A stretch of DNA of 56,991 bases from a virus: positions 1-56,991 of the IMG/VR virus record IMGVR_UViG_3300025098_000048; one strand, given 5' to 3'. Positions 3,645 to 49,723 of this stretch are shown here, piece after piece. Each line of letters starts with the position of its first letter. The first letter of the stretch is position 1. Below the pieces are notes generated by a model, which worked only from the letters and a program-made list of their open reading frames with translations, did not search any database and was not told where the DNA came from. Position numbers and translations under genes: made by a program.

Positions 3645-5360
3645 CTAATCGATAAGGCCAAAGCGCATAGCTACAAGCCTATCTTCTTCACTCCACTCAT
3701 CAATATCATCGTTTTTCGTAATGCCTTTTTCATTTAATACCTGCGTTACTACGTCTCCGTGCGTATTATTACCAGCAATGCGTTCTCCTTTATGATTTAA
3801 AATTACCTCACCTATTGCAATCGAGTAATCTCCGAAGCTTTTTTGTAGTTCGTTTAAGCCGTGATATAAACTATCGAGCAAATCGTCATGTTTTGCCACG
3901 GGGAATAGAGAAGCTTCGTTAATAAACTCATCCATTACGTTTCTGCTTCTTTCATCACCTATAGGAAACTTAATAAAATTGTTTTCGAATAAAACAGCAA
4001 CCTTGTGGATACCTACTTTCAGTGCATTATGCCTCGTCATAGCGATACCTTTTACAGGCATTGAAGTTCTTTGCAGTTGATTTACATATAGATTACCAAA
4101 AGAGTTCTTTTCTACTATAACACACCTAACGTAATCACTAAATTTGTTATACATAGAAGAAATAGCGTTAAGTATTTCAGTTTGTGTTAAACCTCTATCC
4201 CTGAAAACATCTATTACCCATACATTACCTTGCTCATCTCGGCATAACGTATAACCAACAGTGAAGTCGCTATCGTTCTTTGCTGCTTTTTTAGAATCAG
4301 ATTCGATAGATAAATCCCAAGATTGAACAACGGTGCATTCTGATATATCAAGGTTTGGAGGAAACGTCCCTAAGCTATAGTTTGTTTGAGCATTTCTTTT
4401 AACCCACTCTGGCTTAATAACAGCGCTTTCTAAAGCAAGGGGTTGATTCATCATCTCTCGAGCAAAAAGAGTTGCTCCCATGCTTCTTCTTTCCATAAGT
4501 AGATATTCTATAGGCCTAAATTCTGGCCATAAAACTTCGTAATCCCCTTCAACCTTAACACCTTTTAGAACTTCACGACCACGTGAATCAGCTTCTATGA
4601 TATATTCATACTTTTCAGGCCACTTTAGAATAGCAGGATCTTCTATAACTTCAAAAGTTGGGTCGTTTTTCATGTGAGAGTAAAGATCATCGTCGTGTTT
4701 TCTTGTGCCGATTACTAACATCAAACCACCTTGATTTAGAATAGGAGTTACAGTTGCACCTAACCATTCACGAGTTTTTGAGCGAACACCTGCTGATGCT
4801 GTTGTTAAATCATCTTCTAAGTCGTCAAATATAACAATATCAACATGCGCCCCAGTAATTTTACCTCCTACACCAATAGCTTCTATGGTTGGATCAACAG
4901 ATGTGCCATTTCTTTGAACATAAAGCTGTGTGCTCGTCCATTTACTATCTTTATCTCTAAACTTAGGCATATCTTCACCATTTGCCCAGTCGCCAACGAT
5001 TTTATCATCATCTAAATATTGTTTAATAAGCCTCACACGTTTCTCTGCTTGCCCTGCGCTGGCACTTATGAATAGGATAGATATGTTTCTATCCATACAG
5101 ATTTTCCTTACAGCGTATGAAATCGCAAGCAGCGATTTGCCATGTGAGCGAGGTGCAAGAACGAGTAGTTTTTTCTTATCGTTGCTTTGTTTAGCTTCGG
5201 CTTCTAATCTATCAATAGTTTTCAGCCAGTTTGTTCTATGTGGTGCTTTACGCATCTTAAGATAATGTGAATCGAAAAATACTGAAGATGCAGAACCTAA
5301 AGCTCTTCTCCCAGCTGTTGTATTTAAAAGTTGTGCTACATTAGCTTTATTATCACTCAT
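3645..5360 (-). CDS. terL: Terminase large subunit (packaging ATPase and nuclease)
   Basis: This is the DNA-packaging motor and cleavage enzyme that docks on the portal. The 571 residues show the expected two-domain order. A Walker A-like APRSHGKS is at residues 69-76, Walker B VDIVIFDDLED at 173-183 and a coupling-motif-like LMLVIGTR near 213-220. The RNase H-fold nuclease acids follow: Asp349 in SWDLS, Glu417 in VIVEKNS and Asp492/493 in HDDLLDS. The length is usual for the family. It overlaps the upstream small gene by 8 bases, so the two are translationally coupled. It is leftward, whereas the head and tail genes are rightward. Confidence 0.95.
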   Translation of the reverse strand: MSDNKANVAQLLNTTAGRRALGSASSVFFDSHYLKMRKAPHRTNWLKTIDRLEAEAKQSNDKKKLLVLAPRSHGKSLLAISYAVRKICMDRNISILFISASAGQAEKRVRLIKQYLDDDKIVGDWANGEDMPKFRDKDSKWTSTQLYVQRNGTSVDPTIEAIGVGGKITGAHVDIVIFDDLEDDLTTASAGVRSKTREWLGATVTPILNQGGLMLVIGTRKHDDDLYSHMKNDPTFEVIEDPAILKWPEKYEYIIEADSRGREVLKGVKVEGDYEVLWPEFRPIEYLLMERRSMGATLFAREMMNQPLALESAVIKPEWVKRNAQTNYSLGTFPPNLDISECTVVQSWDLSIESDSKKAAKNDSDFTVGYTLCRDEQGNVWVIDVFRDRGLTQTEILNAISSMYNKFSDYVRCVIVEKNSFGNLYVNQLQRTSMPVKGIAMTRHNALKVGIHKVAVLFENNFIKFPIGDERSRNVMDEFINEASLFPVAKHDDLLDSLYHGLNELQKSFGDYSIAIGEVILNHKGERIAGNNTHGDVVTQVLNEKGITKNDDIDEWSEEDRLVAMRFGLID

Positions 5361-13617: not shown

Positions 13618-15939
13618 ATGCCTAATTGGTTTGAAAGATTTAAAGCAGCAAATGATGGAGAAGATAACGAAATAAATAAAAGCGTTATTGATGAACTTCA
13701 AAAAGAAGCAAGGTCGTATGAGTTAAACCCATACGATTCAGCTAATATTAGTATGTTAAGTGATTCGAAAGGTAAAAGTGATTATTACTATGATGTAGGT
13801 GGCCGAGGCGCTATCACTTATCATCAGTTAGAAAACTTAACAAAACACCCAATCGTATCAAGTATCTTACAAACCAGGATTAATCAGGTTGCTGAGTTTG
13901 CTCGATTTACAGATGATGATGATTTAGGTTTTTCAATAAAACTTAAAGATGCAGAAGCTGAGCCGAGTGATGATGATAAAGAAACAATGAAGATGCTTAG
14001 AGCATTTATTGAAAATTGTGGCTCAGAACCTACAGATTTTGAACTTAACTTCGAAAATTTCTTAAAGCAAATAGTTAGAGATAGTTTAGCATACGACCAG
14101 TGCAACTTTGAAATAGTAAGAAATAGATTAGGTGAGGTTGTTGCTTTTCAGCCAGTTGATGCAAAAACTGTAAGAAGAGCAAAACTTTCTGAATCTGAGA
14201 TTAAAGCTGGTAGAAGAGATAAAGATAGAGCGGCATATGTTCAAGTAATATCTAATAAAGTTGTTGCTGAATATAGCCAAAAAGATTTATGTTTTGGTAT
14301 TAGACGACCAAGAACAGATTTAAGCTCACTTAAATACGGATATCCTGAGTTAGAAGAGCTCGTAGGTGTTATACAAAACATCTATCAGGCTGAAACATAT
14401 AATGCATCAAACTTTACTAATGGTATAAACGCAAACGGTATCATTGCTGTTAAAAGCAAAATGAACCCAAACCTTTTCAGAGCATTTAGACGTGAGTTTT
14501 ATCAAATGTTAAATGGCGTTCAAAACGCTAAAAGAACTCCACTAATACAACTCGACCCAGAAGGTGATGAAGCTATATCATCTATTAATCTTAGCAACTC
14601 TAATAAAGAAATGGAATATGATAACTGGCTTAAATATTTAATAAAGCTATCATGTTCAGTATTTCAAATGGATCCTGCAGAGATTGGATTTGTTTTTGGT
14701 AATGAAGGTAGCGGAAACTCTTTTGTTACAGCTGACCCAAATGCAAGAATACTCATGGGTAAAGAAAAAGGTTTGCGACCACTTATTCGAAGTATCGAAG
14801 GGTGGATAAACAAGTATATTATTTCGCAAATTGATGATAGATTTGAGATTACATTCAACTACTTAGATAGCATTTCTTTGCTTGATAAGATGAAAGTTGA
14901 AGAGCATCGAATGAAGTATTTAACTCTTAATGAAATAAGAGCTTCACACGATTTAACAGAGTTAGAAGATGGTGATGTTGTTGCTGCATATTACGCTCAA
15001 CTAAAAGTTGCTGGTGTTAAAGCAGGTATTGCTGATATTACACAAGATATTGATAAAAGTGTTGATACAGATAACGATGGTGAATCACATCCTTCAGAAT
15101 ACTTTGAAGGTTTAGATGAAGATACAAAAAGAAAACGTGAAAAAGAAATAGAACGACGTAAAAAAGTTTATAGAGAAACTGGAAAGCCAGTATATGGGCC
15201 ACTCCCAGGTGATGAAGATATTGAAAAAGCCAAACAAAACAAAGGCACTAAATCTAAAAAGGCTGATGAAGTAAGAGAAGAGATTAAAAAGCCCGGTAAA
15301 GATGAGTTCATTAGAGCAGCAAGTAAAGTATCAGGCGTTTCTAAAAAGATTATTGAAGAAGTTTATGATAAAGGTTTAGCAGCATATGCAACATCAGGCC
15401 ATCGCCCTGGTGCAACACCTCAATCTTGGTCGAGGGCAAGAGTTTATTCCTTCTTGTTTGATTCAAAATCTGGTGCAAGAAAAGTTGATATGCACCTTTG
15501 GGAAGAACATTTAGAAAGCAAAAAATCAGTTTCTAATGATAATATACCTAACGAAGAAGAAATCAAAACAGAGATTAACGTAGATACTCTATTGAAGGCT
15601 TATACATATAAACCAACTCAAACAGTTGCAGATGTAGCACAAAGAGCTATAGACGCAAGAGAAGAACACGGTGATAAAGTAAAAGGTGGAACAAGAGTTG
15701 GTTGGACGCGAGCAAGGCAACTGGCAAATAGAGATGTAGTTTCATATGATACAGTTAGAAGAATGAAAGCTTTCTTTGATAGGCACGAAAAAAATAAAGA
15801 AGTTTCTGAAGAAGATAAAGATTTTCCATGGGCAGATGCCGGTTATACAGCTTGGCAAATTTGGGCCGGAGATGAAGGAAGAGCTTGGGCAGAAATGATT
15901 GTTGAAAGAGTTAAAAAAGAAGAGGAAGACGATGAGTAA
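13618..15939 (+). CDS. Portal protein with extra C-terminal domains (773 aa)
   Basis: The portal forms the dodecameric ring at the packaging vertex and docks the terminase and neck. Residues 1 to about 480 match a portal: the early segment ITYHQLENLTKHPIVSSILQ, a clip/stem region, and FQMDPAEIGF near 350. The sequence then continues far beyond a normal portal. There is a charged linker, then a segment near 560-640 with HRPGATPQSWSRARVYSFL, of a kind seen in other phage proteins. Last is a domain at about 665-765 with TRARQLANRDVVSYDTVRRM, FFDRHEKNK and AWQIWAGDEGRAWA. That last domain occurs in various phage structural and DNA-handling proteins. It is followed by scaffold and protease genes, as expected. 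Confidence 0.88.
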   Translation: MPNWFERFKAANDGEDNEINKSVIDELQKEARSYELNPYDSANISMLSDSKGKSDYYYDVGGRGAITYHQLENLTKHPIVSSILQTRINQVAEFARFTDDDDLGFSIKLKDAEAEPSDDDKETMKMLRAFIENCGSEPTDFELNFENFLKQIVRDSLAYDQCNFEIVRNRLGEVVAFQPVDAKTVRRAKLSESEIKAGRRDKDRAAYVQVISNKVVAEYSQKDLCFGIRRPRTDLSSLKYGYPELEELVGVIQNIYQAETYNASNFTNGINANGIIAVKSKMNPNLFRAFRREFYQMLNGVQNAKRTPLIQLDPEGDEAISSINLSNSNKEMEYDNWLKYLIKLSCSVFQMDPAEIGFVFGNEGSGNSFVTADPNARILMGKEKGLRPLIRSIEGWINKYIISQIDDRFEITFNYLDSISLLDKMKVEEHRMKYLTLNEIRASHDLTELEDGDVVAAYYAQLKVAGVKAGIADITQDIDKSVDTDNDGESHPSEYFEGLDEDTKRKREKEIERRKKVYRETGKPVYGPLPGDEDIEKAKQNKGTKSKKADEVREEIKKPGKDEFIRAASKVSGVSKKIIEEVYDKGLAAYATSGHRPGATPQSWSRARVYSFLFDSKSGARKVDMHLWEEHLESKKSVSNDNIPNEEEIKTEINVDTLLKAYTYKPTQTVADVAQRAIDAREEHGDKVKGGTRVGWTRARQLANRDVVSYDTVRRMKAFFDRHEKNKEVSEEDKDFPWADAGYTAWQIWAGDEGRAWAEMIVERVKKEEEDDE

Positions 15940-18439: not shown

Positions 18440-19942
18440 ATGTTACCTAACATTAACGAAAACGTAGATATTAACGATCTAACCCGTCTTAACGATGCAC
18501 TTAAAAAGAACAGTGAAGTTGGTTATCAAACCCAAGCTGGCACTGCAGGCTTTAATGCTATCGTTCCACAATCAATCGAAGGAACTCTTGCTTCTGCTAC
18601 TCATAGCATGCAAGATTTGGCTCTTTGGCCGATGCTTCCTAAGGTTCAAGTTTCTAATACACTACATGAATATGCAGTAATCAAAGAGCACGGTCAAGAT
18701 CTCGACCCCTTCATTTCAGAGGGTGGCGGAGCTCAAAGTGATTTTGGTTCAACTGCTTCTGTTTATGAGCGTAAAAACGTAAAAATCAAGTATATGGCCG
18801 AAAGACGTCAGATTTCTGATGTTGCGACTCTTGTTGGTATTCTTGGAAGCAACCCAAATGGTTTAGCTGAAGAAACTGAAAGAGGAACAATGAGCCTCAT
18901 GCGCAAAGTTGAGCAACAGTTATTCTGGGGCGACGAAGAGCTTGATGCAGCAGGAAGCACTCCTTTCGACGGTATCTTAAAGCAAATTGAGCGTGCAGGT
19001 GGAGCAAGAACTGACGCAAACGGTGGGCAGGCTTTCTCTGAGAATACTGTTTCTAACGAAGGCGCTTCTCTCGACCCAACTAAACTTCACGACATTCTTG
19101 GTGAGCTTCACAGCGCACCTCGTTTTGGTCGTCCTGATACTGTTATGATGGAGCCTCGTTTATACAGCCAGCTTATCAAGCAATCAGTTCAAAACGGTCG
19201 TCATGATTCACTTCTTATGGTAGATCGTGGAGCTAACGGTGTTCAAACTCTTGGTGCTGGGCCAAAACTTCACATTATGGGACCCATGGGCCCAGTTCCT
19301 GTTGTTTCAGCTCCTTTCCTTAGCCGCCACTTCTCTGCAAGTGCTGCAGGTTCAGCCACAATCGGTGGTGCATTTACTCAGGTTCCTGTAGCTTCTGGCG
19401 CAGGCGTAGCTAAATGGGATCTTGCTGGTGGTGCAACTGATAATCATAATGGTTTCTTCCGTTATGTTGTAGTTCCAGTTAGCAAGCAAGGATACGGCGC
19501 ACCTATCGTTTCTGTAGCTTCTATCCAAGGTGATAGTGGTGCTCAAGCAGAGCCGATTAAGTTCCAAGTAAGTAATCCTAACGGAGCACATTACTATCGT
19601 ATCTATCGCCTCAAACCAGGATATAGCCAAGCAGCTGCTGACGCTCTTACTTCTGCTGAGGTTATTCGTGATAGTAAGCTTATTGCTGAGGTTCCTGCTG
19701 CAGAAATCGTTGGACGTGAGTTCGAGGATTATGGTATTGAGCGTTGGGGCCACGGACGTATCGTTTTCGCACAAATGGATCAAGGCGTTATCGAGTTTGC
19801 TCGTCTTCTCGATTTCCTTCGTCGTCCTTTGGCAGAAACCGGTTCAGCACGACAATTCCTATTGATGCTCTTCGGATCACCTGTAGTGAAAATTCCTTCT
19901 AAGTGCTTCACTCTTCGTGATGTTCCTTCAGTATTACTTTAA
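18440..19942 (+). CDS. Major capsid protein with Ig-like insertion (500 aa)
   Basis: This is the main shell subunit. The protein starts with a helical N-terminal arm and contains an HK97-like region (IVPQSIEGTLASATHSMQDL near 41-60, then RQISDVATLVG). It follows protease and scaffold and is itself followed by a very strong terminator. Residues about 340-432 look like an inserted immunoglobulin or fibronectin type III-like beta domain, with VVVPVSKQGYGAPIVSVAS, then YYRIYRLKPG and FEDYG. Codon use is GC-richer than in its neighbours, as often seen for highly expressed genes. The ribosome-binding site is TAGGAGATACAG. Confidence 0.88.
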   Translation: MLPNINENVDINDLTRLNDALKKNSEVGYQTQAGTAGFNAIVPQSIEGTLASATHSMQDLALWPMLPKVQVSNTLHEYAVIKEHGQDLDPFISEGGGAQSDFGSTASVYERKNVKIKYMAERRQISDVATLVGILGSNPNGLAEETERGTMSLMRKVEQQLFWGDEELDAAGSTPFDGILKQIERAGGARTDANGGQAFSENTVSNEGASLDPTKLHDILGELHSAPRFGRPDTVMMEPRLYSQLIKQSVQNGRHDSLLMVDRGANGVQTLGAGPKLHIMGPMGPVPVVSAPFLSRHFSASAAGSATIGGAFTQVPVASGAGVAKWDLAGGATDNHNGFFRYVVVPVSKQGYGAPIVSVASIQGDSGAQAEPIKFQVSNPNGAHYYRIYRLKPGYSQAAADALTSAEVIRDSKLIAEVPAAEIVGREFEDYGIERWGHGRIVFAQMDQGVIEFARLLDFLRRPLAETGSARQFLLMLFGSPVVKIPSKCFTLRDVPSVLL

Positions 19943-40655: not shown

Positions 40656-41024
40656 ATGTTTCCTGTATTTTTTGAAAACAGTAAAGTTCCTAAGGTTTTG
40701 AGCAAGGTTGCACCAATAGAAATAAATGCAATAACGCTTGGGCCTTTAGTTTTTAGTCGTGGTGAGTTATCTGATAAGGTTAAAAGGCACGAAACAATTC
40801 ACTGGATGCAATACAAAGAGCTTTTGATTATAGGCTTCTTGATTGTATATCTATATGATTATCTGTTTGCTGCTGTTTTAAAGAAAAAGGGCTTTAATAG
40901 GCAATCCTATTTAGCAATAAGATTTGAACAAGAAGCATACGATAATGATACTAACGAAAATTATTTAAAAGAAAGAAAACCATATAAGTGGTTAGATTAT
41001 CCACTCGGAGGAAACAATGAATAA
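40656..41024 (+). CDS. HExxH metallopeptidase-like membrane protein (122 aa)
   Basis: His45-Glu46-Thr-Ile-His49 (RHETIHWMQ) is a zinc-binding HExxH motif. A hydrophobic helix at 55-75 follows, then FEQEAYDNDTNENYL, which could supply the third zinc ligand (Glu91 or Glu93) as in gluzincin-type enzymes. The motif sits just before the membrane segment, so the active site may lie at the membrane surface. It is small for a free peptidase. It begins the envelope cassette after the tail genes. Its stop overlaps the next start. Confidence 0.65.
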   Translation: MFPVFFENSKVPKVLSKVAPIEINAITLGPLVFSRGELSDKVKRHETIHWMQYKELLIIGFLIVYLYDYLFAAVLKKKGFNRQSYLAIRFEQEAYDNDTNENYLKERKPYKWLDYPLGGNNE

Positions 41025-41295
41025 AGATAAAAAAACACTTTCACCAATGCAAAGCAAAAAGTTTTTAGCATATTTGTTTGCAGATATCGGATGGAAAGCT
41101 ATTATCCTATATCAGTTAATGCACCTTAAAGGAAAACTGGAGCTAAATGAGCTAACTTTTTTAATAACAACAGTAATAACAGCTGGTGTAATACAGATTG
41201 GTTATATATTAGGGCAAAATTCACTTGATAAATACTTGAGTTCAGCCGTAGAGATATTTGATAGAGACGATAAACCCCCAAAAAAAGAGGGGTAA
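41017..41295 (+). CDS. Small two-helix membrane protein, holin-like (92 aa)
   Basis: Two hydrophobic stretches, about residues 14-35 and 46-66 (LTFLITTVITAGVIQIGYIL), with a charged C-terminal tail resemble holins. It is encoded with a strong GGAGGA ribosome-binding site inside the end of the preceding gene. The amidase is on the other strand 5 kb away, so a lysis role is not proven. Other possible roles are membrane anchoring for the cassette. Confidence 0.55.
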   Translation: MNKDKKTLSPMQSKKFLAYLFADIGWKAIILYQLMHLKGKLELNELTFLITTVITAGVIQIGYILGQNSLDKYLSSAVEIFDRDDKPPKKEG

Positions 41296-41296
41296 T

Positions 41297-41488
41297 ATGA
41301 TTTTTGATGAAAAAACAGTGTGTGCTCTCTGTAAAAAGATAGAGTGCCAATGCACATATTACAAATGCCCTTGTGGAAAGTTAGAAATAAACTGTAAATG
41401 GCCAGAAGATAGCTTTTGCCCTTGTAGAATATGTGATGAGTTAGCTCATAACTGCTCATGCCATAAACCTTTGGAGAAGAAAGAATGA
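41297..41488 (+). CDS. Cysteine-rich mini-protein (63 aa)
   Basis: Twelve cysteines occur in 63 residues, arranged largely as CxC and CxxC pairs (CALC, CQC, CPC, CPCRIC, CSCH), with several His. It may bind two or more zinc ions. The frame is open further upstream, but the ATG at 41297 lies just behind the previous stop and has a nearby AGAGGGG run. The next gene's ATG overlaps its end. No family is recognised. Confidence 0.6.
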
Positions 41489-42186
41489 AAAAAGTTTTAT
41501 TATTCATATCTATTGTTTTTATTTACTGCTATATAAATCTGATTCAAATATTTCCAAGTTGGGCTCAAAGCTATGAATGTGATAACAACTTTGAAGATTG
41601 TGGAACACCTGAACAGAGTGGTGGTGGAGGCGGAGGAAAAGGCAGCGTTTTAATAGCAAATACAGATTTAGGTGATAGTTATCAACATGCAGATGATTAT
41701 GATGATGATGGCATTGAAGATCCATCTGATAACTGTATGAGAATGCCTAATCCACAACAACTTGATAGAGATGGAGATGGTGTAGGTGATGCTTGTGATA
41801 ACTGCCTATCAATACATAACCCCTATCAGCAAGATATGGATGGTGATATTTTAGGAGATTACTGTGATGATGATATTGATGGTGATACGTTATTAAACAG
41901 TGATGACGAATGCCCGTTTATGTATGGAAATAGTTATTGCTTTGAAGAGTTAAGCAGAGAGCATCCTCGTGATTCACAGCAAGCTATATGGATATCAGAT
42001 GAACAACCTTATAGCATAACAAGTAGGAATAAAAATCATACTAATGAGTTAGATGATAAAGAAGGCTGTAATCAAAGTTATAAAAAAGGAAGTGGGAATT
42101 GGTTATGGTGGGGTTTCTTTTTTTGGTTTATTTATTTATTCTTAAACTGGGAGAAGCCTAACAAAAACAACAAGAAAGATGATTAA
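41485..42186 (+). CDS. Exported TSP3-repeat calcium-binding membrane protein (233 aa)
   Basis: A Sec signal peptide covers about residues 1-27 (hydrophobic core, cut after SWA). A Gly-rich linker is followed at 70-143 by thrombospondin type 3 repeats: [20 protein letters not shown] and then [14 protein letters not shown], a near-perfect calcium-binding pattern with paired Cys. A single membrane helix rich in Trp/Phe lies at about 205-221, with a short basic tail. The protein should be anchored in the inner membrane with its repeats in the periplasm. Such repeats are rare in phages. The neighbouring cyclase follows 5 bases downstream. Confidence 0.8.
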
Positions 42187-42191
42187 ACATT

Positions 42192-43037
42192 ATGGAAGAA
42201 AACAACGTTGTTGAAGCTGAAATAGCTATTGTAATAACAGATATTATTGCGAGCACTCGTTTCGTTCAAAAGAACGGTAAATATGCTGCTGCACGTTGGT
42301 TTTCCACACACGATAAGCTCGTTATGAGTTTAATAACGAAACATAATGGGCAATGGTTAGATAACAGCGATGGCACTTTGATGTATTTTGGTAATGTGCC
42401 AGATGCTATTGCTTTTGCATTTGCTTATAAAAAGTTTTTAAGAGTTAAGAAGTTTCCTTTTAGGAGCAGGATTGGCATTCACTGGGAAAGTATGCTGATT
42501 GTTAAAACAGAACAAAGTATGATATCAGGAGGAGCTAAACGATTAGCTATCGAAGGTATAGGTAAAAACATAGCAGCAAGAACAATGAGTTTATGCGGAT
42601 CTGAGCAAATACTTTTATCACATTCAGCTTATACAATATTTAAAAGATACGGGCACAAAAACCCATTCATACCTAAAAATGCATTATCAGCACTTGTAGG
42701 ATTATACAAGTTTAAAGGTGTTTCTGAACCTGAGCGTATTTATGCTGTTGGCTTGATTACGGAACAAATGCAACCTCCACCCGATTCAGAGAAAGCAAAG
42801 AGGATTGGTGGTGCAAAGAAAATAAAAACAAGAATGAAACATAAACGATGGAGTGAAATATTTTTTTACTTTTTATATCGCATCGGCTTTATAATGTTTT
42901 GTTATTTGATATATACTTTCTGGCCTTTACTTTCAAATGGGCAAGCTAAAGCAAGTTGGAATATTGATTACCTCGTTTTACGACCATTTGAATATATAGA
43001 TTTACTAATATGTTTTATCAAGGATTTAATAAAATGA
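42192..43037 (+). CDS. Class III nucleotidyl cyclase-like protein with membrane helices (281 aa)
   Basis: Residues 10-190 match the class III adenylate/guanylate cyclase fold. Metal-binding Asp17 is in VITDIIASTRF, and Asp60 is in NSDGTLMYF where GDG is usual. RSRIGIHWE follows, and Asn126 and Arg130 (GKNIAAR) are the transition-state residues. The normal ATP-specifying Lys (about residue 56, here Leu) and Asp (about 119, here Ala) are not present in my alignment, so a substrate other than ATP is possible. Two membrane helices lie at about 221-245 and 257-280. The product, a cyclic nucleotide, could act on host signalling. The start has no obvious ribosome-binding site and may be coupled to the TSP3 gene. 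Confidence 0.75.
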   Translation: MEENNVVEAEIAIVITDIIASTRFVQKNGKYAAARWFSTHDKLVMSLITKHNGQWLDNSDGTLMYFGNVPDAIAFAFAYKKFLRVKKFPFRSRIGIHWESMLIVKTEQSMISGGAKRLAIEGIGKNIAARTMSLCGSEQILLSHSAYTIFKRYGHKNPFIPKNALSALVGLYKFKGVSEPERIYAVGLITEQMQPPPDSEKAKRIGGAKKIKTRMKHKRWSEIFFYFLYRIGFIMFCYLIYTFWPLLSNGQAKASWNIDYLVLRPFEYIDLLICFIKDLIK

Positions 43038-43165
43038 AAAACAGCAGCATTCTGGAATACATCTGGATTGGTTTTCTAATAAGTGTTATCTTAACACAGT
43101 TATATATTACAAGAATTGAAATGGATAAACCTTATGGGATTGAAAAAGCAGCCAGAAGGCGCTGA
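43034..43165 (+). CDS. Single-helix membrane mini-protein (43 aa)
   Basis: The ATG overlaps the cyclase stop (ATGA). One hydrophobic helix (about residues 8-25, EYIWIGFLISVILTQLYI) with a charged tail ending in RRR predicts an inner-membrane protein. It may be part of the same complex as the cyclase. Translational coupling supports it as real. Confidence 0.6.
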   Translation: MKNSSILEYIWIGFLISVILTQLYITRIEMDKPYGIEKAARRR

Positions 43166-43601
43166 TAAAGAAGTCGTTCAACAGAAAAGAGAAACAAGAG
43201 GCTGGTTATTTAGCGTTGTTTTCTTATTTACAATAATAATGCTGATTATTTTTTTAGCGTTATTTGATTTTAAAGAGAGTAATCGTGAAGTTTTAATCGG
43301 GTTGTTTGGTATTTTATTTGGTAATATACCTTCGATGATTATCATTGCGAGTGGAAGAAGCCCTGAAGAAATAGATGAATTGAAATCTAAACTTTCAAAA
43401 AGTGATGGTGATAGGCAAGCTTTGATTGCAAGGCTTAGAGATTCACAAATACAACTTCAGTTAGCGCGTCAGCAAATGTTTGAGTTGCAAGATAGTGTTA
43501 TTAATGAACTTTCTATACTTAGAGGAAAAAATCCTATTAAGAGTAGAAACGAATCAGATGTAATACTGCCTGAAATAGTTGATGAATGGACGTTAAAATA
43601 A
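43134..43601 (+). CDS. Membrane protein with coiled-coil tail (155 aa)
   Basis: Two hydrophobic segments near residues 25-45 and 55-72 are followed by a helical coiled-coil region with LLSL-type heptads (RQALIARLRDSQIQLQLARQ) and a charged C terminus. The upstream in-frame TTG at 43116 is an alternative start. The ATG at 43134 has GGATAAACCTT before it. Architecture, not sequence, suggests a membrane-anchored scaffold. No family is recognised. Confidence 0.6.
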   Translation: MGLKKQPEGADKEVVQQKRETRGWLFSVVFLFTIIMLIIFLALFDFKESNREVLIGLFGILFGNIPSMIIIASGRSPEEIDELKSKLSKSDGDRQALIARLRDSQIQLQLARQQMFELQDSVINELSILRGKNPIKSRNESDVILPEIVDEWTLK

Positions 43602-43656: not shown

Positions 43657-44070
43657 ATGAAAAAACTAATATTAACAGCACTAATGCTAATTTTGCCACT
43701 TGTTGGTTGTGAAAAAGATGAAGAAAAGAAATGTGATTGCGATGAATGCCCATGTGAGCAAATTCGTGATGCAGAGCCAGAAATGGAAGATGGTGATATG
43801 GGCCTGGAGGGTGGTGCAGAACAAGAAGATTTGCCGGCTGGAGGCCAAGATGCATCTGGTGGAATGGAGCAGGACGAAGAAGAAGAAGGTGGTGAGCAAA
43901 TGGAAGAGCCTGTATTGCCTGTTGCAGGTGAGATGATGCCAGAAGAGGATTGCGGAGAAATGCCTGAGGATGAAGAAATGTGTGTTCCTGAGATGATGCC
44001 TGAGGAAGATCCTGAAGAAGATGAAGTTGTTGATTGTGAATGTGAGAGCTCAGAAGATTGTGAGTGTTAA
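43657..44070 (+). CDS. Acidic, Met-rich lipoprotein (137 aa)
   Basis: The signal sequence MKKLILTALMLILPLVGC ends in a lipobox (LVGC), so Cys18 would be lipidated. The mature chain is strongly acidic, with many Glu, Asp, Met and Gly, and several Cys. There are Cys pairs (CDCDECPC) at the start and at the end (CECESSEDCEC). Such a protein could bind metal ions. It has a strong AAAGGA ribosome-binding site. In a Gram-negative host it would sit in the inner or outer membrane facing the periplasm. No family is recognised. Confidence 0.75.
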   Translation: MKKLILTALMLILPLVGCEKDEEKKCDCDECPCEQIRDAEPEMEDGDMGLEGGAEQEDLPAGGQDASGGMEQDEEEEGGEQMEEPVLPVAGEMMPEEDCGEMPEDEEMCVPEMMPEEDPEEDEVVDCECESSEDCEC

Positions 44071-46069: not shown

Positions 46070-46846
46070 TTAGCAGCTGCTTTCTTTACCCCACAAATCA
46101 CCTAACCAAGGTGCAACATCATATTTTTGTTTGCTTAAGTTATGATGGCCAACAACAGAATAGTTTGTTGCTTCTTTAATACCTAAAACTTCATCAGAAT
46201 CTAACATAGGTTTTTCTTCTAAATCCATAATCATTCGTAAATCATTAATAAACTCATTAGTAATATCAGCTATTTCTGGGCATAACGAAACAACTTGTCG
46301 AGGCCCTCTTGAAGAAGGGTTAGGAACCATTTCTGCTGAAGGATGAAATACTCTTGTTTTAGCAATATGCTTTTCTACAGGGCTTTGGCAAATATCTAAC
46401 CCGATTGAATAACCATTAAACTTACCAGCGTGATACGAAACTAAACCTGTATCTAACCATTGGCTTACCTCAAAACGTTTTTCATTCGGATCATAACCAA
46501 TACCAAAATGGCTTGATACGTGCCGTGATTTAGTATTGTAAAAAATCATATAGCAATGTTTTACGTTTAAACCACCCCAATGAGCACAAATAGTATCAGC
46601 TTTACCTTTTCGCATCCTCCAGTTTTTTGTGCCATCAGGAAGTTGAAAAAGCGAATCTTTATGATCCACAACATAGCTTGCGCCAGGGATAGGAACAATT
46701 TCACCCATATGAGCAATAACTGGGCCACCAAAGTATTTTTCTGCTGCTGCTAATGAGTTTTTACCAAATACACCATCAGATGCAACACCTATTTCTTTTT
46801 GTAGGTTTTTTACATAAATCTTGTTTCTATTTACCAGTTCAAACAT
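46070..46846 (-). CDS. N-acetylmuramoyl-L-alanine amidase (endolysin) (258 aa)
   Basis: This enzyme cuts the bond between muramic acid and the stem peptide. Residues 1-40 look like a peptidoglycan-binding domain (YVKNLQKEIGVASDGVFGKN). Then the amidase_2/T7-lysozyme-like domain has zinc ligands His89 (AHWGG) and His234 (VGHHNLSKQKYDVAPW), with Asp243 in place of Cys as in many family members, and His139. There is no signal peptide, so it probably needs a holin to reach the wall. A promoter-like motif in reverse orientation lies just upstream. Confidence 0.88.
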   Translation of the reverse strand: MFELVNRNKIYVKNLQKEIGVASDGVFGKNSLAAAEKYFGGPVIAHMGEIVPIPGASYVVDHKDSLFQLPDGTKNWRMRKGKADTICAHWGGLNVKHCYMIFYNTKSRHVSSHFGIGYDPNEKRFEVSQWLDTGLVSYHAGKFNGYSIGLDICQSPVEKHIAKTRVFHPSAEMVPNPSSRGPRQVVSLCPEIADITNEFINDLRMIMDLEEKPMLDSDEVLGIKEATNYSVVGHHNLSKQKYDVAPWLGDLWGKESSC

Positions 46847-48427: not shown

Positions 48428-49723
48428 ATGAATGAAATTGAATCTAATCTTAAACAAAAATGCGTAATCATTGATACGTCAGTATTACTATACGATGCAC
48501 AATCAATATACAACTTTGGTTCTAACGATATTTACCTCCCTTTCGCAGTTTTAGAGGAGCTTGATAAGAAGAAAACTGAAGCAGGTTCTATTGGTGAAAA
48601 CGCAAGATTTATAAACCGTTTATTAGATAAGCTAAGAGCAGAAGGCCCTCTTCACGAAGGTGTTCCGTTTAACGACGTTAAGCTCACAGTTCTTACTAAT
48701 ATAAAACTATGTGATGAGTTAGAAGAGGAAAACAACGATAACGTCATATTATCTGCTGCTTTATTTGTAAGCGAGCAATATGATTATAACAAAGTTAAGC
48801 TGATAACTAAAGATATTAACCTAAGAGTTAAATCAGATGTATTAGGCATTATTTCAGCAGATTACTATGCTAATTACGAAGGTTTAGATACACAGTGGAG
48901 TGGTTGGAGAAAAGTAGATACAGTTTCTAAAGAGCAGATTGATGAGCTATATAAAAAAGGTTCATTACAAACAAAAGAAAAATATTATCAAAATGAGTTT
49001 CTTGTTTTAGAAAGTGAATCAAATACAGCTTTAGGGCAATACAAAGGTGGTAAGATTATTCTTGTATCATCAAAAGATGCTTGCCATAAAGAAACTGGTT
49101 GCACTCCTAAAAATAAAGAACAACAGTTTGCCTTACATACATTAACTGATGATGATATACCTATGATTACTTTAACAGGTTTGCCCGGAAGTGGTAAAAC
49201 ATTCTTATCATTTATGGCTGGTATTAAACTTGTTTCTGATGGAGCTTATGCTCGTATTATTTATACAAGGCCTATTACAACAGTTGGTAAATCATTAGGA
49301 TTTCTACCCGGTGATATCGAAGAGAAATGGGCACCTTACTTAGCACCTATTGAAGATAACTTTAGAAATGCATTTGGTGATCTAACATATTTCAGTTTAA
49401 TGCGTGAAAAAGGGCAGATTGATATCTCTCCGATTAGTTATATGCGAGGTAGAAGTTTTAAAAACTGCTATATCATTGTTGATGAAGCACAAAACTGCAC
49501 ACCACACGAACTGAAAACTATTATTACTCGTATGGCAGAAAATTCGAAGCTCATACTTTGCGGTGATACCAAACAAATAGATGATGTTTATATGAATGAA
49601 AGCTCTAATGGCTTATCAATCATACAAGGTAAGTTTCAAAACTCCAATCTATCAGCCCACGTTAAATTTACAAAGGGTTATAGAAGTAGGTTGGCAACAG
49701 AAGCTGATAGAATATTAGAATAG
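48428..49723 (+). CDS. phoH: PIN-PhoH family protein (ATPase/RNase) (431 aa)
   Basis: Residues 10-150 form a PIN-type nuclease domain with Asp16 (CVIIDTSVLL), Glu44 (VLEELDKKK) and Asp129 (ITKDINLR). The C-terminal half is a PhoH P-loop ATPase with Walker A GLPGSGKT (251-258) and Walker B IIVDEAQN (349-356). The two-domain form is like PhoH2 proteins, which have RNA helicase and RNase activity in mycobacteria. In phages PhoH is common, possibly for stress metabolism or RNA control. An ATG 4 bases upstream is out of frame and stops at once, so the start is at 48428. Confidence 0.88.
   Translation: MNEIESNLKQKCVIIDTSVLLYDAQSIYNFGSNDIYLPFAVLEELDKKKTEAGSIGENARFINRLLDKLRAEGPLHEGVPFNDVKLTVLTNIKLCDELEEENNDNVILSAALFVSEQYDYNKVKLITKDINLRVKSDVLGIISADYYANYEGLDTQWSGWRKVDTVSKEQIDELYKKGSLQTKEKYYQNEFLVLESESNTALGQYKGGKIILVSSKDACHKETGCTPKNKEQQFALHTLTDDDIPMITLTGLPGSGKTFLSFMAGIKLVSDGAYARIIYTRPITTVGKSLGFLPGDIEEKWAPYLAPIEDNFRNAFGDLTYFSLMREKGQIDISPISYMRGRSFKNCYIIVDEAQNCTPHELKTIITRMAENSKLILCGDTKQIDDVYMNESSNGLSIIQGKFQNSNLSAHVKFTKGYRSRLATEADRILE

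What the first reader, a model, noticed from the sequence alone, without database searches (positions are those of the whole stretch)
42192..43037. Phage-encoded class III nucleotidyl cyclase with membrane helices and altered substrate residues
The sequence shows a class III cyclase core with the metal-binding Asp17 and Asp60 and the Asn126/Arg130 pair. The Lys and Asp that normally fix ATP as substrate seem replaced by Leu56 and Ala119, though the alignment in that loop is one residue short and must be checked. Two membrane helices follow at the C terminus. Cyclases of this class make cAMP or cGMP, and related pyrimidine cyclases drive the bacterial Pycsar anti-phage system. A phage version could send its own signal, flood or mimic host signalling, or act with the neighbouring envelope proteins. 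This is the best candidate for an undescribed system.
Basis: partly seen in the sequence, partly recalled or inferred. Interest (0 to 1): 0.85.

Follow-up and report, generated by a model that had tools for sequence, protein, structure and literature searches.

The report
Phage nucleotide cyclase with obligate membrane partner
Many uncultured tailed phages carry an enzyme of the family that makes cAMP- or cGMP-like signal molecules, and next to it they always carry the same small membrane protein, which suggests that these viruses run their own two-gene signalling device inside infected bacteria.

Summary
[quoted passage not shown] Pfam barely sees it, but NCBIfam TIGR04510 (E 6.6e-36), PDB sequences and fold comparison (Ma1120, Rv1900c) agree. 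Metal Asp17/Asp60 and Arg130 are present in essentially all of 101 relatives, Asn126 in 98. One correction: the ATP-fixing Lys aligns to an invariant Asp57, not Leu56; the Asp position is Ala119 here but Glu or Asn in 96 of 101. There is one clear C-terminal membrane helix plus a weaker hydrophobic stretch. It comes with an obligate partner, a 155-aa protein (43134-43601) with two membrane helices and a long coiled coil. Searched independently, each gene was always found with the other unless the contig ended; always same strand, usually overlapping, in at least four genome contexts. No cNMP-binding domain was found in 19 records. Best reading: a viral membrane-bound cyclase complex; product and target unknown. 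It resembles Pycsar in layout but is not shown to be Pycsar.

The parts
42192..43037 (+). Class III nucleotide cyclase gene (281 aa): catalytic domain residues about 10-190, basic linker 200-221, C-terminal membrane anchor
42240..42242 (+). Codon of Asp17, first metal ligand (100/100 of family rows with a residue there)
42360..42362 (+). Codon of Asp57, at the substrate-specifying Lys position (Ma1120 Lys101); invariant 101/101
   Evidence: PMC4215837
42369..42371 (+). Codon of Asp60, second metal ligand (101/101)
42546..42548 (+). Codon of Ala119, at the second substrate-specifying position (Ma1120 Asp157); Glu/Asn in most relatives
42567..42581 (+). Codons of Asn126 to Arg130, transition-state pair (Asn 98/101, Arg 101/101)
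42858..42914 (+). Clear C-terminal transmembrane helix (residues 223-241) after a strongly basic linker, so the catalytic domain should face the cytosol
   Evidence: hydropathy; topology inferred from the positive-inside rule
43134..43601 (+). Obligate partner F1 (155 aa from ATG 43134; a longer TTG start at 43116 is possible): two TM helices, then a 49-residue cytosolic coiled-coil helix and a conserved V..EW tail
41017..41295 (+). F2, 92-aa protein with 1-2 predicted TM helices, near the cyclase in about half of relatives, but also found alone; accessory, not obligate
41258..41488 (+). Small Cys-rich (zinc-ribbon-like) protein, family F11, in 14 of 25 close relatives by ORF clustering (its window copy seen); accessory

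Best explanation
This is a virus-specific family of class III nucleotide cyclases, anchored in the inner membrane by the C terminus, working as one unit with an obligate small membrane protein (F1). F1 has a two-helix membrane hairpin and a long coiled coil pointing into the cytosol, where the cyclase domain also lies; I infer that the coiled coil contacts and controls the cyclase, as the helical transducing elements of other membrane class III cyclases do (own knowledge). During (probably late) infection the pair makes a 3',5'-cyclic nucleotide. The acidic residue at the base-reading position argues against a classical ATP enzyme and is compatible with GTP or a pyrimidine. With no cNMP-binding domain found in the phages, the signal most likely acts on host receptors, to reprogram the infected cell or keep out competitors. 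Shown: fold, catalytic residues, family, strict pairing, predicted membrane segments. Inferred: activity, product, physical complex, target, timing.
For: Cyclase identity. Catalytic residues kept over relatives down to about 24% pairwise identity. Pairing: independent F1 scans returned loci that all carry the cyclase except L164, where F1 starts 71 bases from the contig end; cyclase-only loci lie at contig ends (six with 0-70 bases left or a cyclase fragment, and L247 with 1,092 bases). Same strand in 223/223 co-occurring loci; 71 of 72 clusters at 95% identity have F1; 43/71 overlap and 62/71 lie within 150 bases (one overlap, L127, may reflect a mis-set start; one pair, L072, has F1 upstream). 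F1: two TM helices in 70/71 and a helix 77-125 modelled with block pLDDT 67-95. Different genome contexts: tail/lysis (window), helicase/nudix, between terminase and portal, thyX region and jumbo-sized contigs; 13 context changes on the cyclase tree against a minimum of 5. No PF00027 in 19 viral records while 10 of 14 control genomes ring.
Against: No activity, product or interaction is measured. F1 is more conserved than the cyclase (median pairwise identity 65% against 46%) and their divergences correlate only loosely (Spearman 0.33), which a mere regulator of this cyclase does not explain; F1 may have its own conserved target and could be the effector. Product choice from residues is uncertain: in Ma1120 even the Lys101Glu/Asp157Gly change left ATP preferred (PMC4215837). 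A non-canonical cNMP receptor in the phages would have been missed, and many records are fragments. Late timing is inferred only from position in structural operons.
Confidence: 0.5

Rival explanations
1. Pycsar-like signal-plus-effector pair owned by the phage: the cyclase makes the signal and F1 is the effector, a 2-TM protein that perturbs the membrane when the signal rises, used against superinfecting phages or as a late killing/lysis trigger.
For: Two-gene cyclase + TM protein layout as in Pycsar PycC/PycTM (PMC11224242). F1 more conserved than the cyclase. Scattered weak hits of F1 to 2-TM effector profiles: PycTM 0.013, SLATT_fungal 0.007, RTasSLATT 0.00036 in one of 23.
Against: Those hits are below cut-offs, inconsistent between members and shared with unrelated TM families. 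F1's soluble part is a single long helix with no known ligand-binding fold; fold and sequence searches of PDB found nothing. No CNB domain.
Confidence: 0.25
2. Counter-defence: the cyclase floods the cell with a competing or decoy cyclic nucleotide, or drains a substrate, to blunt host cyclic-nucleotide defences such as Pycsar or CBASS.
For: Phages do attack second-messenger defences, and hosts answer with decoy nucleotides (Panoptes, PMC12657218). The module moves between phage contexts as an accessory.
Against: Known anti-defence proteins of this kind are sponges or hydrolases; an obligate membrane coiled-coil partner is not expected. No link to defence genes was tested.
Confidence: 0.12
3. 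Lysis control: F1 and F2 are holin-like proteins and the cyclase sets lysis timing.
For: In the window the set lies between tail-fibre genes and an amidase/lipoprotein region; F1 and F2 are small proteins with predicted TM helices.
Against: In other lineages the pair sits between terminase and portal or next to a helicase, not with lysis genes, and F2 is absent from the terminase-portal group. No holin family matches F1.
Confidence: 0.08
4. Catalytically dead cyclase-fold protein used as a binding module.
For: Substrate-specifying residues are non-canonical and the hairpin is one residue short.
Against: Both metal Asp, the Arg and nearly always the Asn are kept over deep divergence; Ma1120, which lacks the Asn, is active (PMC4215837).
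Confidence: 0.05

Closest known systems
NCBIfam TIGR04510 'putative peptide modification system cyclase', N-terminal cyclase domain
   Same: Best profile match over the whole catalytic domain (residues 12-204 to model positions 7-204; E 6.6e-36; all 12 diverse relatives, best 5.7e-47).
   Different: Far below the curated cut-off (124 of 400 bits): the C-terminal three quarters of the 814-position model are absent, replaced by a TM anchor; phage-borne; paired with F1.
Class III adenylyl cyclases Ma1120 (M. avium) and Rv1900c/LipJ (M. tuberculosis)
   Same: Closest solved structures by sequence and fold; same metal Asp pair and Arg.
   Different: Lys101/Asp157 of Ma1120 replaced by invariant Asp and by Ala/Asn/Glu; hairpin one residue shorter; TM anchor and partner protein.
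Pycsar (PycC + PycTM/PycTIR)
   Same: Two-gene layout of class III-fold cyclase plus membrane protein; weak PycC profile matches.
   Different: Carried by phages, not hosts; the PycC substrate residues described so far (aromatic residue two before the first metal Asp, Arg/Lys/Gln in the hairpin; PMC11224242) are not present; partner lacks a CNB domain.
Guanylate-cyclase-domain proteins of uncultured Caudovirales phages in UniProt (e.g. A0A6J5KRX6, 287 aa)
   Same: Viral proteins with this fold are already deposited; similar length.
   Different: Named by domain only; the literature terms tried returned no study of phage nucleotide cyclases; weak fold match (E 2e-3), membership in this family untested.

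Membership tests
Class III nucleotide cyclase | Catalytic-domain homology by profile or fold | tested here: met
Class III nucleotide cyclase | Two metal-binding Asp and transition-state Asn/Arg | tested here: met
   D17, D60, N126, R130; family counts
Class III nucleotide cyclase | Cyclase activity | not testable with these tools
   needs enzyme assay
Classical ATP-specific class III cyclase | Lys/Asp (or Lys/Thr) substrate pair | tested here: not met
   Asp57 and Ala119 by profile alignments
Classical guanylyl cyclase | Glu/Cys (or Glu/Gly) substrate pair | tested here: not met
   Asp at the first position, Ala/Asn/Glu at the second; same charge at the first position only
TIGR04510 mod_pep_cyc | Full-length score above 400 bits | tested here: not met
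   124 bits, 149 bits for L177
Pycsar | PycC cyclase profile match | tested here: inconclusive
   7e-5 for this protein; 4 of 12 relatives match the best-matching PycC model, best 4e-6; TIGR04510 is far stronger
Pycsar | Receptor/effector with cyclic-nucleotide-binding domain | tested here: not met
   PF00027 absent from 19 viral records, controls positive; F1 has no such domain
Pycsar | Anti-phage activity and cUMP/cCMP product | not testable with these tools
   needs experiment
SLATT/PycTM 2-TM effectors (for F1) | Profile match above cut-off | tested here: not met
   SLATT_fungal 16.9 bits against 26.5; PycTM E 0.013

The most novel reading that the evidence does not exclude
Tailed phages carry a mobile two-gene cyclic-nucleotide signalling system of their own (cyclase plus a dedicated 2-TM coiled-coil receptor/effector) that acts inside the infected cell, for example to exclude rival phages: a viral counterpart of Pycsar with an unrelated partner protein.
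Probability: 0.28. Interest if true: 0.9.

Novelty: new variant of a known kind. Interest (0 to 1): 0.72.

Why it matters
Cyclic mononucleotides are known as bacterial signals and as alarm signals against phages; phages are known to destroy or mop up such signals. A widespread phage cyclase family that never travels without one particular membrane protein indicates that viruses also make such signals, and gives a defined two-gene cassette on which product, receptor and role can be tested directly.

Tried and rejected
Pfam alone (missed the cyclase) and PHROGs (no family). Cellular relatives: two scans of 84,980 species genomes gave none; these scans use short exact back-translated patterns, so distant cellular relatives would be missed. 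F1 as SLATT/PycTM: weak, inconsistent hits, not accepted. F1 fold search: no meaningful match. F2 as an obligate third component: rejected, 35 of 80 F2 loci lack the cyclase nearby, and only 33 of 72 cyclase clusters have F2 in the neighbourhood clustering. Antisense and short ORFs around the gene were not pursued. The literature terms tried for phage nucleotide cyclases returned nothing relevant.

Full report
What is there. The ORF at 42192-43037 (+) runs from ATG to stop and encodes 281 aa. The window is a 56,991-base IMG/VR virus record with terminase (3645-5360, Terminase_6C), portal (13618-15939), major head protein (18440-19942, phrog_752), baseplate wedge proteins and tail genes, so it is a contractile-tailed phage and the gene is not a misbinned bacterial one. 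Pfam's cyclase model hardly sees the protein (E 0.18; only 1 of 23 relatives reaches 0.01), but NCBIfam TIGR04510 matches its whole catalytic domain at 6.6e-36 and LipJ at 9e-6; all 12 diverse relatives match both. Among solved structures the family profile finds Rv1900c (1.3e-14), Ma1120 (2e-12) and GRESAG 4.1 (1.3e-10), and Foldseek of an AlphaFold2 model (pLDDT 57, so modest) gives Ma1120 and Rv1900c at E 2e-8 to 4e-7 with probability 1.0.

Catalytic and substrate residues. Over 101 distinct relatives Asp17 (100 of 100), Asp60, Arg93, Arg130 and Lys175 are invariant and Asn126 is present in 98. The three exceptions have Ala, as Ma1120 itself does while being active (PMC4215837). The base-reading loop is one residue shorter than in Ma1120. 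Asp57 is invariant (101/101), as are Lys116 and Lys125, which mark this family. The second position (Ma1120 Asp157) is Ala here, Asn in 24 and Glu in 72 relatives. A carboxylate at the Lys position recalls guanylyl cyclases (Glu) and argues against a classical adenylyl cyclase, but the Ma1120 mutants show that such changes do not by themselves fix the product. The pyrimidine-reading residues described for PycC clades (PMC11224242) are not there.

How widespread. Pattern scans of IMG/VR found at least 269 contigs with the cyclase; those fetched hold at least 134 distinct full-length proteins, and the first 105 fell into 72 clusters at 95% identity, on contigs from about 4 to 376 kb. No match was found in 50,697 annotated phage records nor, at the sensitivity of that scan, in 84,980 bacterial and archaeal species genomes; plasmids gave only generic cyclases at 24-29%. 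UniProt does hold uncultured Caudovirales proteins named for a guanylate cyclase domain, so the existence of viral cyclase domains is not new, but the literature terms tried returned no study of them.

The obligate partner. Gene-neighbour clustering showed one family, F1 (window 43134-43601), in 24 of 25 close relatives. F1 was then searched on its own with its own patterns: 298 and 278 contigs in two scans, the best 80 of each fetched. Every F1 locus fetched carries the cyclase, except L164 where F1 begins 71 bases from the contig end; all cyclase loci without F1 end at or shortly after the cyclase (0-70 bases, a cyclase fragment at an edge, or L247 with 1,092 bases, while F1 lies 1.3-4.0 kb away in 8 of 71 clusters). 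Where both are present they are on the same strand in 223 of 223 loci, which include repeats of some contigs; in 71 clusters the genes overlap in 43 and lie within 150 bases in 62. The pair occurs in different settings: between tail-fibre and lysis genes (window type), beside a helicase and a nudix hydrolase, between terminase and portal, and in thyX-type and jumbo-sized contigs; the cyclase tree needs 13 changes of setting against a minimum of 5, so the module has probably moved.

What F1 looks like. Two predicted TM helices in 70 of 71, then a helix of about 49 residues modelled with high confidence in its middle (pLDDT 85-95), then a conserved tail ending V..EW. Basic residues before the first helix place both ends in the cytosol, the side on which the cyclase domain should also lie (inference). 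F1 is more conserved (median 65%) than the cyclase (46%) and the two diverge with only loose correlation (Spearman 0.33). It matches no curated family above cut-off and no solved structure. Weak hits to 2-TM effector profiles (PycTM, SLATT, RTasSLATT) are inconsistent between members and are recorded only as a lead.

Mechanism. I consider a membrane-bound cyclase complex most likely: strict co-occurrence, gene overlap and the facing cytosolic parts suggest a physical unit, and a TM hairpin plus coiled coil is a plausible transducer but a poor ligand-binding receptor. No canonical cNMP-binding domain was found in 19 of these viral records, so the signal is expected to act on host receptors. The main rival, a Pycsar-like signal-plus-effector pair, gains from the stronger conservation of F1 and cannot be excluded. 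Activity, product, interaction, timing and target are all untested.

Membership. It is a member of the class III cyclase superfamily by fold and residues. It is not filed under TIGR04510 (124 of 400 bits), under classical adenylyl or guanylyl cyclases (substrate pair not met) or under Pycsar (no CNB receptor, weak PycC match). The new part is the virus-borne family and its obligate partner, hence 'new variant of a known kind'.

Noticed in passing
window 41485-42186: Secreted or membrane protein with thrombospondin type 3 (calcium-binding) repeats (PF02412 5e-14) directly before the cyclase; among close relatives only in the nearest (L003/L004 type).
   Followed up: partly
window 41017-41295; loci L183-L262: F2, a 92-aa protein with 1-2 predicted TM helices and an invariant SKKF.AY / G..G...L.KY pattern, found in at least 82 viral contigs, 35 of the 80 fetched without the cyclase nearby, some on contigs over 200 kb; family unnamed.
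   Followed up: partly
L015, L020, L023, L024, L027, L031: Small, variable genes (families F28, F34, F36, F43, F44, several on the opposite strand, possibly fibre-like) are inserted between the cyclase and F1 in several phages, yet the pair stays together on one strand.
   Followed up: no
L178:7145-7951: The most divergent cyclase (about 28% identity to L177) has Ala for the catalytic Asn, but its F1 is nearly standard; shows the two proteins diverge at different rates.
   Followed up: partly
window 13618-15939: Portal protein carries an extra DUF5824 domain (E 5e-17) at its C-terminal part.
   Followed up: no
window 43657-44070: Very acidic short lipoprotein-like protein (MPEE-rich) after F1, spanin-like position before a reverse-strand amidase (46070-46846).
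   Followed up: no
window 48428-49723: PhoH ATPase fused to an N-terminal PIN domain.
   Followed up: no
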